A stretch of 5,057 bases of DNA from JACPSX01 sp035288405 [NCBI: bacterium] (GTDB taxonomy: Bacteria > JACPSX01): positions 1-5,057 of the forward strand of contig DATEAK010000390.1 in NCBI GenBank assembly GCA_035288405.1. The letters run 5' to 3'. Shown here piece by piece: positions 486-5,057 of this stretch. The notes under the pieces were generated by a model. The model was given only the letters and a program-made list of their open reading frames with translations, had not been told where the DNA came from and searched no databases. Within the stretch, counting starts at the first letter, position 1; each line of letters opens with the position of its first letter. Both the position numbers and the translations under genes were made by a program.

Positions 486-1412
486 TCAGGTTGAGTGTTG
501 TTCTAACAATACGGGCGCAGATGGAGAAGCAGAAGGTCGCAAGCAAGCGGCCGAAAGAAAAACCATGATGGCCATGAGGGCCTCTGCATTCGCCAGGTGA
601 AGAACGGTCACAGTCGGAGCGAGACGGGAGGAAACGGCAAGGATACCCAGGAAAATTTGCAGTCCCACGAAAATCGCCGCTGCCGGAGCGAGAGCCTTCA
701 GAAATGGTTGCTCTTTCAGTGTGCCTAGCGTGCGGGCTGCCGCTACCAAGGTCAGCCCTGCGACGAGTAGGGCTCCGGCCCGATGGAGGAAATGAAACGT
801 GGTAAGACCCTTCAGGGGAGGGATCAACTCCCCTTGACAGAAGGGGAGGTCCGGACAGGCCAATCCGGCACCGCTGTGACGGACGTAAGCGCCCAGGATC
901 ATCTCGATGTAGAGTGCTCCCGTGGCGATCAGCGGCCAGAACGGTCGCAGCTCGCCCTGTGTGTTGTCCAAGAAAACAGGATTTCCGGAAGCCCGGCGGC
1001 TCAATATCACCATTAAGGCCAGAGTGACCAGAAGAGCAGTGCCCAGAGCGAGGTGACCCGTGACGACTTCTGCGGGGAGCTCTCTGAGTACGGTAACGGC
1101 TCCCAGCAAAACCTGGCCCAGCAGTACCACGAGTGCGGTTGCTGCGGCCGCCCCGGCTCCGGGAATTTGCCGGCGCCTGCGCCATGCGGCTACGGCGGTC
1201 GCGAGAACCAGAAGGCTTACCAGGGCGGCCAGAACCCGGTGACTGTATTCAATGAGGACGGGGCCTTCAAGAGGAGGAATGAACTGCCCGCGGCATAGGG
1301 GCCAGTCGGGGCATGCCAGACCGGAGCCCGTGGCGCTGACGATGCTGCCCACGATCAGCAGGAGATAAGTTGCCGCCAGGCTAATCCAGGAGAGCCGTTC
1401 CAATGGTTTCAT
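486..1412 (-). CDS. ctaA: Heme A synthase (COX15/CtaA family)
   Basis: CtaA oxidises the C8 methyl of heme O to a formyl group, giving heme A, in the cytoplasmic membrane. The 308-aa protein is full length for the bacterial family and shows the expected internal duplication of two four-helix bundles. The first half has a Cys pair in GLACPDWPLC (C34, C40), then E55 and H58 in EYSHR, and H120 in TGHLALGT. The second half repeats this with GLACPDLPFC (C186, C192), H210 in HFLHRAGA and H272 in VLHLANAE. The four histidines are the expected heme-binding ligands, and E55 matches the catalytic Glu of the Bacillus enzyme. Cys pairs in both extracytoplasmic loops are as in Bacillus subtilis CtaA. The ATG start at 1412 has AAGGA (1419-1423) six bases upstream. 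The gene leads the leftward ctaA-ctaB operon, diverging from the oxidase operon. Confidence 0.97.
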   Translation of the reverse strand: MKPLERLSWISLAATYLLLIVGSIVSATGSGLACPDWPLCRGQFIPPLEGPVLIEYSHRVLAALVSLLVLATAVAAWRRRRQIPGAGAAAATALVVLLGQVLLGAVTVLRELPAEVVTGHLALGTALLVTLALMVILSRRASGNPVFLDNTQGELRPFWPLIATGALYIEMILGAYVRHSGAGLACPDLPFCQGELIPPLKGLTTFHFLHRAGALLVAGLTLVAAARTLGTLKEQPFLKALAPAAAIFVGLQIFLGILAVSSRLAPTVTVLHLANAEALMAIMVFLSAACLRPSASPSAPVLLEQHST

Positions 1413-1671: not shown

Positions 1672-1692
1672 GTGCAGAGGCTTCCGTGGTAA
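1672..1692 (+). other. Possible six-codon leader ORF overlapping the oxidase start
   Basis: The strongest ribosome site in the region, GAGGAGG (1661-1667), stands 4 bases before a GTG at 1672. That GTG opens a six-codon frame (MQRLPW) ending with TAA at 1690-1692. The frame differs from that of the oxidase gene and overlaps its GTG start at 1686. Translation termination here could feed ribosomes to the oxidase start. The site could equally be a chance ORF, or the purine-rich site could be poorly placed for the main gene. I see nothing recognisable in the peptide. Confidence 0.2.
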
Positions 1693-3470
1693 CCCGAGAG
1701 AAGGATGCTCGATTTGGATTCTTCCTTTTTTTCTTCCTCGGTGCCGTGGTTTTAGCTCTTTTTCCTGTGGCCCCCACCCTCGCGCAGGAAGCCGGCAAAG
1801 AAGTCGCCTACCGGGCGTTTCCCCTTCTGGGCTCTAAACTTGCTGTCTGGGTTATAGCCCAGATCCACTTAAATTTTGCCGCCTTCATCCTCGGCGTTCC
1901 CGTCTTTTCCGTCATCATTGAAATCGTGGGATGGCGGACAAAAGACCCGAAGTACGACTGGCTCGCCCACGAATTTGTCAAGCTGATCATCTCTGCTTTC
2001 TCGATTACGGCTCTGCTGGGAGGACTGTTGCTGTTTATCCTGGTCGGTTTTTATCCGAAGCTCTGGTCGTACATGAGCGGCATTTTTTTCCCCACCTTCT
2101 GGATGTACGGAATCCTCTTTTTCCTGGAAACCTTCACCGTCTATCTCTGGTATTACGGGTGGGAGTGGCTGAGCGGGCCGAAGAAGTGGATCCACGTCAG
2201 CCTCGGGGTGCTCTCAAACCTGTTCGGCACCGCGATTCTCTTTGTGGCCAACGCCTGGGTCACTTTCATGGTTTCTCCGAAAGGAATTGACGAGGCGGGG
2301 AATTTACAGAGTCTCTGGCAGGCCATCGACAACCCGACCTGGATGCCCATCAACGTTCACAGGCTCCTGGCGAATGTCGTTTTCGGCGGAATCATTGCAG
2401 CCGCCTACGCGGCGTATCGTTTCCTTTCCGCCACCACGGAAGAAGAGCGGGCCCGCTACGACTGGATGGGTTATATGGGCAACTTCGTCGCGATCTCGGC
2501 TTTTCTCGTGCTCCCCTTCGCCGGCTACTACCTGGGACGCGAGATTTATGCTTTCAACCAGACCATGGGCATCACGATGATGGGGGGCTTTCTCTCCTGG
2601 CTGTGGATCATCCAGGCGATCCTGATCGGGATCCTCTTCATCTGTTCCAACTATTATCTCTGGCTGGGAATGGAGCGAATTCCGGGGTCGGAGCGCTACC
2701 GGAGGTATATTCCTTACCTTCTCATGGTCCTTGCCTTCGGATTCATGGTGTGGGCCACCCCGAGGAGCATGGTGGTCACACTGGCAGAATCCCGGGCCAT
2801 GGGAGGAACCTATCATCCGATTCTGGGCTTCCTGGGGGTCATGTCCGCGAAAAACACCGCGGTGAACATCTTGATCCTTACCACGTTTCTGTCGTTCCTG
2901 CTGTACCGGCGAGCGAACCGTCTCTCCACAAAATCCTGGGCCGGTACCGGAATGACAGTGCAGTGGGCCACCTTCGGGATTGCGGCGAGCATCGTCATCT
3001 TCTTTGGCGTCTACGGATACTTCGTGGATTCCATCGTGCGGATCGGCTTCTCCGTTTACCAGGTGCTAGCTGTGCTGGGGACCATCGTACTTGTCATGGC
3101 CATCGACATCCCCATGTTCCGGGGTGCCAAGTCGACGGGTACGATCCGCTGGGGGAAAATTGCTCCGCGCTCTCAATATGTGTTAATCCTGCTGGCCGTG
3201 ACCTTTACCTGGCTGATGGGGCTTATGGGCTTTGCGCGTGCCGCAATTCGCCAGTACTGGCACATCTTCGGCGTCATGCAGGACACTTCCCCCGAGGCCG
3301 GGGCCCCTGCATTGGGGTATGCGGCGAACGTGATCTCCGGGGTGACCATCGTTTTCTGGTTGCTCGTGATGTTTATTTTTTGGCTTGCCAGTTTGGGCGA
3401 CCGGGGGAAGGCAAGAGCCCATGAACACGCAGCTCCGGTGGTCGCCGGCGGCGTCGGGGATCCGGAGTAA
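1686..3470 (+). CDS. Atypical cytochrome bd-like oxidase, subunit I (CydA superfamily)
   Basis: This is a probable heme-bearing oxygen reductase subunit of the cytoplasmic membrane. From GTG 1686 it has 594 residues. A signal peptide or extra helix (10-33, ending TLAQE) is followed by about 13 membrane helices. CydA landmarks are H61 in AQIHLNFAAFILG (like E. coli H19), FFLETF with E148 (like E107), VANAW (187-191), and H225 in NVHRLLANVV (like H186). By hand alignment the E99 position is M140, the E445 position is A519 in GFARAAIRQYWHIFGVM, and no loop is long enough to be a Q-loop. The GTG start has AGAGG (1676-1680) 5 bases upstream and leaves a normal signal peptide. A TTG at 1623 would add 21 residues but has no ribosome site. 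No cydB follows; cytochromes c do, which suggests cytochrome c rather than quinol as donor. Similar proteins are known from Nitrospira. The superfamily call is firm, the activity is inferred. Confidence 0.9.
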   Translation: MVTREKDARFGFFLFFFLGAVVLALFPVAPTLAQEAGKEVAYRAFPLLGSKLAVWVIAQIHLNFAAFILGVPVFSVIIEIVGWRTKDPKYDWLAHEFVKLIISAFSITALLGGLLLFILVGFYPKLWSYMSGIFFPTFWMYGILFFLETFTVYLWYYGWEWLSGPKKWIHVSLGVLSNLFGTAILFVANAWVTFMVSPKGIDEAGNLQSLWQAIDNPTWMPINVHRLLANVVFGGIIAAAYAAYRFLSATTEEERARYDWMGYMGNFVAISAFLVLPFAGYYLGREIYAFNQTMGITMMGGFLSWLWIIQAILIGILFICSNYYLWLGMERIPGSERYRRYIPYLLMVLAFGFMVWATPRSMVVTLAESRAMGGTYHPILGFLGVMSAKNTAVNILILTTFLSFLLYRRANRLSTKSWAGTGMTVQWATFGIAASIVIFFGVYGYFVDSIVRIGFSVYQVLAVLGTIVLVMAIDIPMFRGAKSTGTIRWGKIAPRSQYVLILLAVTFTWLMGLMGFARAAIRQYWHIFGVMQDTSPEAGAPALGYAANVISGVTIVFWLLVMFIFWLASLGDRGKARAHEHAAPVVAGGVGDPE

Positions 3471-4313
3471 ATGCGGCTGCCGGTCGTTGTGAGGATCAGT
3501 GTGCTGGGTCTTGCCGCGATGGGTGTGTACACGTACTACGCAAACTCCATTCCCCAGATTCAATTAAAGCCTCCTCAGCAGCTCTCCCTGGAAAGCGGCA
3601 AAGTAACCAATGAGCAGCTCGTCAAGGCGGGTGAGGGGATTTTCCACGGGAAAGGCACCTGTGAGGTTTGCCACCGGATCGGCCAGCCGGGATCCCGTGC
3701 TCCCGATCTGGCCGGCGTCGGCGCCCGGGCGGCAAAACGGAAAACCGGTCTGAGCGGGAAAGCCTACATCATGGAAGCACTGCTGGACCCCGGGGCTTAC
3801 GTTGTGGAAGGTTTTCCAAACATCATGCCCAAGGCGGACAAGCCTCCCATCGGTCTGAACCGGTCCGAGGTGTGGGCGATCACGGCCTTTCTCGAGTCTT
3901 TGGGGGGGACGGTGGATGTGACGCTGGACGATATCCCGAAAACTGCGGGATCTGGTGGGGCAGGCGGGGGAAGTGCTCAGGTAGTGGAGTTGAAGCTCCC
4001 GGGTGATGCCCAGGCCGGGCAGGCGGTTTTCATGGGGAAGGGCGGTTGTTTTGCCTGTCACAAAGTCGGCCCCGCCGGAACCGGAACCGTCGGGCCCGAC
4101 CTTTCTCAAATCGCAAAAATCCAGACTCCTGAATACATCATGGGAAAAGTTCTTGATCCGGCCGCCATGGGGACCGTGGCTGGGTTTCCGCCCCACGTCA
4201 TGCCCCAGACTTTCGGACAGACCCTCACTGCCAAAGAGTATGTCGATCTTGTCTCCTTTCTCTTGACCCTGAAGGGCGGCAGCGCTGCCCCGACGACTCA
4301 AGGAAAGAAGTAA
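3471..4313 (+). CDS. Membrane-anchored diheme cytochrome c
   Basis: This is a likely electron carrier on the periplasmic face, donating to or forming part of the oxidase encoded just upstream. The 280-aa protein has one N-terminal hydrophobic segment (about 5-23) without a clear cleavage site, so it is probably an anchor. Two class I cytochrome c domains follow. Domain 1 has CEVCH (64-68) and its probable axial Met119 in NIMP; domain 2 has CFACH (193-197) and Met244 in HVMP. A Gly/Ser-rich linker (about 158-169) joins them. Both domains share the order CxxCH, PDL, LDP, GFP, MP, so they look like a tandem duplication. The tail is Gly/Ala/Thr/Lys-rich. The ATG directly follows the oxidase TAA with no gap, with CGGAG (3463-3467) very close and GGGGA (3456-3460) at 10 bases, implying coupled translation. 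It could also serve as a CydB-replacing subunit; the exact role is unproven. Confidence 0.93.
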   Translation: MRLPVVVRISVLGLAAMGVYTYYANSIPQIQLKPPQQLSLESGKVTNEQLVKAGEGIFHGKGTCEVCHRIGQPGSRAPDLAGVGARAAKRKTGLSGKAYIMEALLDPGAYVVEGFPNIMPKADKPPIGLNRSEVWAITAFLESLGGTVDVTLDDIPKTAGSGGAGGGSAQVVELKLPGDAQAGQAVFMGKGGCFACHKVGPAGTGTVGPDLSQIAKIQTPEYIMGKVLDPAAMGTVAGFPPHVMPQTFGQTLTAKEYVDLVSFLLTLKGGSAAPTTQGKK

Positions 4314-4316
4314 TCC

Positions 4317-5057
4317 ATGCTTCGATCGAAGTTTTTCCAGGCAATTTTCATTTTCGTTGCAGCTTTTGCCTTCTTCCGTTACGGGATCCGCCCGCCCGCT
4401 CCCTGGAGCGTGGTGTATCTCTATATGGGCATTGTGCTGGTCGCCTTGCTGGTCTACGTTTCCTCCGACTCGGAGTCATGGCAGGCGTTCCTGCGTCCGA
4501 TCCGTGTGGTCCTGGTTGATGAAGAAAAAGGACTCATCCGTCTCCTCCTCATGATTGTCTTGCCGCTTCTCCTGGGCTATTACGCTTACTCCCAGGCTGC
4601 AGCCAAGGTGGAGGCCCCTCCCGAACTGCGCGCCATCCACCCGGCACCTCCTTCTTCGATTTCGTTCCGGGGAAAGACGATCAGTATTGAGGGGCTGGAG
4701 AATCCCCTTCGAAAAGACGGCGCCAACTTTCGCAAGTACGTAAGTGAAGGAGGCGAGATCTACATCAAGAACTGCATGTTCTGCCATGGCGACAACCTGA
4801 ACGGCGATGGTATGTTTGCCCACGCGTTTAATCCCGCTCCGGCCAATTTTACCGACCCTGGGACGATTGCGATGCTGCAGGAATCCTACCTGTTCTGGCG
4901 GATCGCCAAGGGAGGTCCGGGCCTGCCGAAAGAATCCAAGCCATGGAACTCCGTCATGCCGTCCTGGGAAGATCGATTGACGGAGGAGGGTATCTGGAAG
5001 GTGATCATGTATCTCTACGATGCCACGGGATTCCAGCCCCGCCGCTGGGACAAGCAG
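4317..5057 (+). CDS. Three-helix membrane protein with C-terminal cytochrome c domain, 3' end missing
   Basis: This is a probable membrane-tethered cytochrome c of the same oxidase module. The frame is open for all 247 codons to the window edge. Hydrophobic segments at about 6-20, 30-48 and 74-92 are followed by a Pro-rich stretch (about 99-114) that probably acts as a spacer. A monoheme cytochrome c domain comes next, with CMFCH (153-157), then GDNLNGDGMFAH, PANFTDPGTIAMLQ, FWRIAKGGPGLP, and the probable axial Met214 in SVMPSWEDRLTEEGIW. The last visible residues (about 225-247) look like the end of the heme domain, so the stop may be close, but a further domain is possible. The ATG follows the preceding stop by 3 bases. 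AAGGA (4300-4304) is rather distant and only a weak GAAG (4307-4310) is closer, so coupling is likely. I recall close cytochrome relatives beside bd-like oxidases in Nitrospira, which I could not check. Confidence 0.9.
   Translation, partial: MLRSKFFQAIFIFVAAFAFFRYGIRPPAPWSVVYLYMGIVLVALLVYVSSDSESWQAFLRPIRVVLVDEEKGLIRLLLMIVLPLLLGYYAYSQAAAKVEAPPELRAIHPAPPSSISFRGKTISIEGLENPLRKDGANFRKYVSEGGEIYIKNCMFCHGDNLNGDGMFAHAFNPAPANFTDPGTIAMLQESYLFWRIAKGGPGLPKESKPWNSVMPSWEDRLTEEGIWKVIMYLYDATGFQPRRWDKQ

What the first reader, a model, noticed from the sequence alone, without database searches (positions are those of the whole stretch)
1686..5057. bd-like oxidase subunit I in an operon with two membrane-bound cytochromes c and no cydB
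Seen: a CydA-superfamily gene, a diheme cytochrome c and a three-helix cytochrome c are packed with gaps of 0 and 3 bases. Known: classical cytochrome bd is CydA plus CydB (plus small CydX) and takes electrons from quinol. The superfamily also contains divergent families thought not to use quinol. Inference: this is a cytochrome c-fed oxygen reductase, with the cytochromes replacing CydB and the quinol site. The assembly would be a poorly described terminal oxidase or a related electron-transfer complex.
Basis: partly seen in the sequence, partly recalled or inferred. Interest (0 to 1): 0.65.

Follow-up and report, generated by a model that had tools for sequence, protein, structure and literature searches.

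The report
Cytochrome-c-wired bd-like respiratory module
The window holds a divergent relative of the respiratory oxidase cytochrome bd that lacks the usual partner and the usual quinol site, sits in one operon with cytochromes c, and in its nearest relatives is joined to a second, ordinary type of oxidase; what it reacts with has not been tested.

Summary
A CydA-superfamily gene (1686-3470), a diheme cytochrome c (3471-4313) and a three-helix cytochrome c (4317 to the window end, cut off there) are packed with gaps of 0 and 3 bases, without cydB. Relatives keep this order: the diheme cytochrome follows in 38 of 39 loci. No CydB match in 41 loci plus window, nor in 11 of 14 genomes.

Quinol-site residues are lost and extra helices replace the Q-loop, as published for OR-N 'bd-like oxidases'. 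Reduction of O2 is less certain: two of five canonical haem-ligand positions are kept.

Two things change the picture. In relatives the third gene is fused to, or followed by, a diheme cytochrome with a NxrC-like EB_dh domain, and in the nearest ones the operon runs on into a cupredoxin-like protein and a CuA cytochrome c oxidase. Also, a radical-SAM/PCP_red cassette accompanies the module in three lineages; searches found no paper on this link.

Verdict: new variant of a known kind (OR-N-like).

The parts
1686..3470 (+). CydA-superfamily (bd-like) membrane subunit, 594 aa, 13 long helices after an N-terminal helix in the model; canonical Q-loop residues absent
3471..4313 (+). diheme cytochrome c, 280 aa, N-terminal membrane anchor
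4317..5057 (+). membrane-anchored monoheme cytochrome c, three hydrophobic segments; open at window end. In L004 (nearest relative), L019, L020 and L021 this gene is fused to diheme cyt c + EB_dh; in L010 it ends at 250 aa and the diheme protein is the next gene. The window cannot tell which
486..1412 (-). CtaA-like haem A synthase, divergent; same arrangement in L004
1..425 (-). CtaB-like haem O synthase, cut by the left window edge

Best explanation
The operon encodes a bd-superfamily respiratory complex that is wired to c-type haems instead of quinol. The CydA-like subunit keeps the N-terminal helical core with the equivalents of H19, H126 and H186. Electrons pass between it and a string of periplasmic haems: diheme c, membrane-anchored c, then a diheme-c/NxrC-like unit that in relatives lies at or after the point where the window ends. 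In the nearest relatives the same operon encodes a cupredoxin-like protein and a CuA aa3-type cytochrome c oxidase. The two enzymes would then share one periplasmic electron pool. I think it most likely that the CydA-like subunit is itself an O2-reducing branch, with the aa3 enzyme as the other. Shown: gene content, order, residue losses, predicted fold. Inferred: complex formation, electron path, O2 as acceptor.
For: Family and fold: PF01654 63.8 bits; the AlphaFold model (pLDDT 74, pTM 0.76) matches ten solved CydA entries at Z 27-30. Quinol site: K252 is L/M and E257 is A/T/I in 36 of 36; by my assignment four extra helices lie where the Q-loop lies. Haem site: H19, H186 and E107 kept in 36 of 36; H126 aligns in the profile comparison and is invariant in A1. 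Cytochromes c follow in 38 of 39 and 35 of 36 loci, the EB_dh unit in 36 of 36; EB_dh of L004 matches NxrC of the PDB (7b04_C, 1.3e-9). coxB and coxA follow in 22 of 31 and 19 of 28 loci; CoxB of L004 carries a CuA-type motif (read). 11 of 14 genomes have no other PF01654 protein and no CydB match. Literature: OR-N enzymes likely use cytochrome c (PMC10839748, passages); a Nitrospina bd-like protein lacks the Q-loop and quinol residues (PMC3578206, passages).
Against: E99 is Tyr in 36 of 36 and M393 is Met in only 2 of 36; E445 is Leu in 35 of 36 with one gap by one alignment, and by the RQxW anchor Ser in 37 and Ala in 1 of the 38 loci, of 41, where the motif was found (the window, not in that count, has Ala). 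So axial ligands of the high-spin pair are not those of known bd oxidases. All 14 genomes already have a haem-copper superfamily match (PF00115). A bd-like gene sits in the NXR cluster of the strict anaerobe Kuenenia (PMC3578206, passages), so bd-like need not mean O2 reduction. Nine of 28 loci with enough flank have no coxA downstream. No co-folding was possible.
Confidence: 0.48

Rival explanations
1. It is not an oxidase but an electron-transfer module: the CydA-like subunit passes electrons between the membrane (perhaps a quinone at a new site) and the periplasmic cytochromes/cupredoxin that feed the aa3 oxidase, or runs in reverse, like an alternative complex III.
For: Operon shared with a CuA oxidase. 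In L028, L034 and L037 the gene lies directly after ActA-, ActB- and ActE-like genes, and in L030 and L036 it follows actC-actD-actE-actF and cox genes (actA/actB not inside these loci). Next best fold match after CydA is ActC of ACIII, Z 19-20. Three canonical haem-ligand positions changed. PMC3578206 (passages) proposed an ACIII-like role for bd-like proteins.
Against: K252 and E257 are lost and no quinone site is known here. NrfD-family matches are present in all 14 genomes, so ACIII itself may be available (not resolved gene by gene). The fold likeness to ActC may only be a common helix arrangement.
Confidence: 0.32
2. It is a quinol oxidase with a relocated quinol site in the extra helices.
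For: Long inserted membrane segment in the Q-loop position (position by my assignment).
Against: 0 of 36 keep K252 or E257; the cytochromes c are conserved beside it.
Confidence: 0.08
3. It detoxifies or senses O2/NO/peroxide beside the aa3 oxidase rather than conserving energy.
For: A Usp-PCP_red protein accompanies the module.
Against: Three or more dedicated cytochrome c haems conserved next to it suggest a respiratory role (inference).
Confidence: 0.07

Closest known systems
OR-N family of the cytochrome bd superfamily (Murali, Gennis, Hemp 2021; not held, known here through passages of PMC10839748 and PMC12342949 and recall)
   Same: CydA homologue without quinol site, proposed cytochrome c donor; OR-N5 lies directly after ACIII genes in Nitrospirales, as relatives L028, L034 and L037 do after act genes
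   Different: OR-N1/N2 are proposed to pair as CydAA'; here 11 of 14 genomes hold a single PF01654 protein. OR-N reference sequences could not be fetched, so the subfamily is unplaced
Nitrospina/Nitrospira 'bd-like oxidase' in the NXR cluster (PMC3578206, passages)
   Same: helices in place of the Q-loop, quinol residues lost; cytochromes c, NxrC-like and cupredoxin-like proteins nearby
   Different: three helices replace the Q-loop there, four here by my assignment; aa3 oxidase in the same operon in the nearest relatives; NXR was not looked for here
TO_1 to TO_4 of Ca. Manganitrophus (PMC9040806, passages)
   Same: bd-like protein with a periplasmic cytochrome b (TO_1) or complex III/ACIII-like parts (TO_3, TO_4)
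Canonical cytochrome bd (qOR, CydAB)
   Same: fold, H19, H126, H186, E107, RQxW
   Different: no CydB, no Q-loop residues, E99/M393/E445 not kept
NxrC / ethylbenzene dehydrogenase gamma
   Same: EB_dh domain in relatives' third or fourth gene (71.6 bits in L004)
   Different: joined to two or three c-haem motifs, beside a bd-like gene

Membership tests
Canonical quinol cytochrome bd (qOR) | cydB beside cydA | tested here: not met
   no CydB hit in 41 loci + window (tblastn E<=1e-3); CydB in 3 of 14 genomes, each beside a separate canonical CydA. The window's own contig could not be extended
Canonical quinol cytochrome bd (qOR) | Q-loop residues K252, E257 (E. coli numbering and role recalled) | tested here: not met
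   0 of 36; 4 of 4 canonical controls have both
Canonical quinol cytochrome bd (qOR) | haem ligands H19, H186, M393, E445, E99 (roles recalled) | tested here: not met
   H19 and H186 36 of 36; E99 is Tyr 36 of 36; M393 2 of 36; E445 0 of 36, and 0 of the 38 loci with the RQxWH motif. The C-terminal alignment is weak
CydA superfamily | Cyt_bd_oxida_I domain and fold | tested here: met
   PF01654 63.8 bits; Z 27-30 to ten CydA entries
OR-N bd-like | no quinol site; helices in place of Q-loop | tested here: met
   description from passages of PMC3578206 and PMC10839748
OR-N bd-like | tree position within OR-N | not testable with these tools
   no OR-N reference sequence could be fetched; tree only separates it from four qOR CydA
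OR-N CydAA' pair | second CydA paralogue | tested here: not met
   11 of 14 genomes hold one PF01654 protein; the second in the other 3 is canonical. The genomes are drafts and may lack genes
OR-N5 | directly downstream of ACIII genes (PMC12342949) | tested here: inconclusive
   met in L028, L034, L037, not in the window, whose upstream genes are ctaA/ctaB
Alternative complex III | NrfD-type quinol subunits ActC/ActF in the module | tested here: inconclusive
   none among the window's genes, nor downstream of cydA in the 41 loci by blast with L034's ActC/ActF; actC lies upstream in L030 and L036 and divergently in L034

The most novel reading that the evidence does not exclude
The bd-like subunit uses a non-standard tetrapyrrole, made or inserted by the accompanying cassette: a radical SAM/SPASM protein akin to AhbD/NirJ2 carrying a C-terminal PCP_red domain, a Usp-PCP_red protein, an Mrp ATPase and, in some lineages, a small PCP_red protein. 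The Tyr at the E99 position and the missing E445 would reflect that changed active-site cofactor.
Probability: 0.12. Interest if true: 0.78.

Novelty: new variant of a known kind. Interest (0 to 1): 0.5.

Why it matters
bd-like proteins without a quinol site are called terminal oxidases in several phyla, but PMC10839748 says that their subunit composition and function lack experimental confirmation, and PMC12342949 that their O2 affinity is unknown (passages). This operon gives a compact, conserved gene set to express, and its coupling to an aa3 oxidase makes a clear test possible: is the bd-like part an oxidase, or an electron feeder for the aa3 enzyme? If the radical SAM/PCP_red cassette modifies its haem, it would point to an unknown respiratory cofactor.

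Tried and rejected
Rejected: 'cydB just downstream' (no match in 41 loci or the window). Rejected: longest-ORF gene maps for the GC-rich loci (one search gave false genes); replaced by a codon-usage caller. Doubtful: a six-codon mini-ORF with a good ribosome site overlapping the cydA start; it is shared with L004 and not evident in the printed upstream stretches of 13 other loci, several of which do not reach the start. Led nowhere: plasmid search with the CydA-like protein (no match); structure prediction of the 729-aa fusion (pLDDT 35, not used); kin search by phylum (returned only the centre genome); full text of Murali 2021 (not held); PMC6018796 passages (nothing on this). Papers: on a link between PCP_red or radical SAM proteins and bd-like or other oxidases, the searches (no paper; eight listed, none holding PCP_red or PF08369) gave none. 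On Rokubacteria and oxidases I saw only listings (20 of 805, 10 of 417) and read none of these beyond PMC6018796. The library lacks most subscription papers and Murali 2021.

Rows dropped before counts: six partial loci (L021, L023, L033, L038, L040, L041) were left out, leaving 36 of 42 family sequences; two canonical hits and repeat copies of the same genes were also left out. In one search only loci with enough flank were counted, with distance limits (c2 600, c3 1500, EB_dh 3000, p235 5000, coxB 6000, coxA 7500 b); L039, frame-broken, fails for c2 and c3. L040 has the cytochromes on the opposite strand and its contig ends inside cydA, so it fell outside these counts. The window is not among the 38 loci of the RQxWH count.
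Full report
Observation. The three genes are present as described: CydA-like 1686-3470, diheme cytochrome c 3471-4313, membrane-anchored cytochrome c from 4317, gaps 0 and 3 bases. The third frame is open at base 5057, so its end is unknown. On the other strand lie ctaA (486-1412) and a partial ctaB (1-425), haem A and haem O synthases.

Relatives. One scan of species genomes gave 41 loci: mostly Rokubacteria, with two Methylomirabilota, at 72-82% identity, one Tectomicrobia locus (L004, 79%), and Rhodothermales, Acidobacteriota, Deltaproteobacteria and Anaerolineales at 50-57%. The window is sister to L004 (100/99) in a tree where the family separates from four canonical CydA (100/100, long branches). 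L004 has the same divergent ctaB-ctaA arrangement.

What follows the window. In L004, L019, L020 and L021 the third gene is a fusion of 729-797 aa: the window's cytochrome domain, then two more c-haem motifs; Pfam finds an EB_dh domain at its end in L004, and blast finds the same unit in the others. In L004's protein the diheme part matches a cytochrome of the PDB (6h5l_B, 2e-33; that it is a Kuenenia protein is recalled) and the EB_dh part NxrC (7b04_C, 1.3e-9). In Rokubacteria such as L010 the two halves are separate genes. Downstream come a protein with a cupredoxin-like C-x2-H-x3-M motif (my reading of the sequence; Pfam sees carboxypeptidase-regulatory-like and fn3_3 domains only), coxB with a CuA-type motif, coxA, two coxC and coxD; in Rokubacteria ctaA and ctaB stand after coxA. 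Counts in loci with enough flank: EB_dh 36 of 36, p235 25 of 35, coxB 22 of 31, coxA 19 of 28. The nine loci without coxA downstream are L020, five Rhodothermales (L027, L029, L030, L032, L036; coxA lies upstream on the same strand in L027, L029, L030 and L036), L028, L034 and L037; in the last three, actA-, actB- and actE-like genes stand directly upstream.

The CydA-like protein. Against E. coli CydA and three canonical CydA from the relatives' genomes, 36 family members keep H19, H186 and E107 in all, but have Tyr for E99 (36 of 36), no K252 or E257, Met for M393 in 2 only (Leu in 22) and no Glu for E445. Anchored on the RQxWH motif instead, the E445 place is Ser in 37 and Ala in 1 of 38 loci, of 41, that show the motif; the window, outside that count, has Ala. 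At the R9 place the window has Lys where the other 35 have Arg. The N-terminal alignment is secure (profile match 46-253 to E. coli 4-214, probability 98.6%), the C-terminal one weak. The model (pLDDT 74) has 13 long helices after an N-terminal helix; by my assignment four of them lie where E. coli has the Q-loop. It matches ten CydA entries at Z 27-30, ActC of alternative complex III at 19-20, polysulfide reductase at 15.6, and everything else listed at 7.4 or less.

Genome context. Of 14 relatives' genomes searched (14 of the 41 loci's), all have a PF00115 haem-copper superfamily match and an NrfD-family match; 4 of 14 have a PF13631 cytochrome b; 3 of 14 have CydB, each beside a canonical CydA; in the other 11 the family member is the only PF01654 protein. 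These genomes are drafts and may lack genes.

Accessory cassette. Beside the module lie a Usp-PCP_red protein, an Mrp-type ATPase, a radical SAM/SPASM protein with a C-terminal PCP_red domain, and in some lineages a small PCP_red protein. The radical SAM proteins score 289 bits with AhbD (L034) and 350 with NirJ2 (L029), below the 500-bit cut-offs, so they are relatives, not members. All four parts lie near cydA in L020, in L029 and in L034; Usp, radical SAM and Mrp follow in all six Rokubacteria regions that I extended (L078-L083). L028 and L037 have Usp, Mrp and the small protein but no radical SAM gene in the locus; in G010, L037's genome, a PCP_red match in a 430-aa frame, which I take to be the radical SAM gene, lies about 2 kb from ferrochelatase and 3 kb from a HemG/HemY-like gene. 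Of 64 PCP_red domain matches in 14 genomes, 45 lie within 25 kb of the bd-like gene; G011 and G013 have theirs on other contigs, and G002 has none, probably because its contig ends inside the Usp gene; among 14 well-known control genomes only Synechococcus has the domain. A HemG/HemY-like match over the cut-off occurs in 12 of 14 genomes and ferrochelatase in 13 of 14, so the cassette is probably not needed for ordinary haem b in most. Against a tie to the bd-like gene alone: in Rokubacteria the cassette follows the cox genes, so it could serve the aa3 oxidase; and in G011 it lies on a contig with another COX1 match, away from the bd-like gene.

Known work. PMC3578206 (passages) describes a Nitrospina bd-like protein with 14 helices, three helices in place of the Q-loop and no quinol residues, next to cytochromes c, cupredoxin-like and NxrC-like genes, with Kuenenia sharing it. 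PMC10839748 (passages) and PMC12342949 (passages) report OR-N types as likely cytochrome c oxidising and not experimentally confirmed, with OR-N5 directly after ACIII. PMC9040806 (passages) describes Manganitrophus TO complexes. PMC8115632 (passages) reports seven bd-like genes in Nitrospira marina. Murali 2021 is not held; what I say of it comes from these papers and recall.

Judgement. A bd-superfamily module tied to c-type cytochromes and lacking the known quinol site is well supported; that it reduces O2 is my leading but unproven reading; an electron-feeding role for the aa3 enzyme is the main rival.

Noticed in passing
L034:14725-21080; L029:14986-21699; L020:2916-7943; L078-L083: Conserved cassette of Usp-PCP_red, radical SAM/SPASM-PCP_red (AhbD/NirJ2-like), Mrp ATPase and (not in L078-L083) a small PCP_red protein beside the bd-like module.
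   Followed up: partly
G010 C19:663827-669675; G007 C43:40153-45821: A PCP_red match (430- and 440-aa frames) lies within a few kb of HemG/HemY-like and NrfD-family genes, in G010 also ferrochelatase.
   Followed up: no
window 1672-1692: Six-codon mini-ORF with a strong ribosome site whose stop overlaps the GTG start of the CydA-like gene; also in L004, not evident elsewhere.
   Followed up: partly
L034:1-9788: actC, actD, actF and cox genes on one strand; actA, actB, actE and the bd-like module divergent on the other: a split ACIII cluster.
   Followed up: no
L039:1-10034: Anaerolineales contig with a second EB_dh and cupredoxin-like pair before a frame-broken cydA-like gene.
   Followed up: no
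L040:3957-8381: Cytochromes and EB_dh gene on the strand opposite to the cydA-like gene, unlike the other loci with flank.
   Followed up: no
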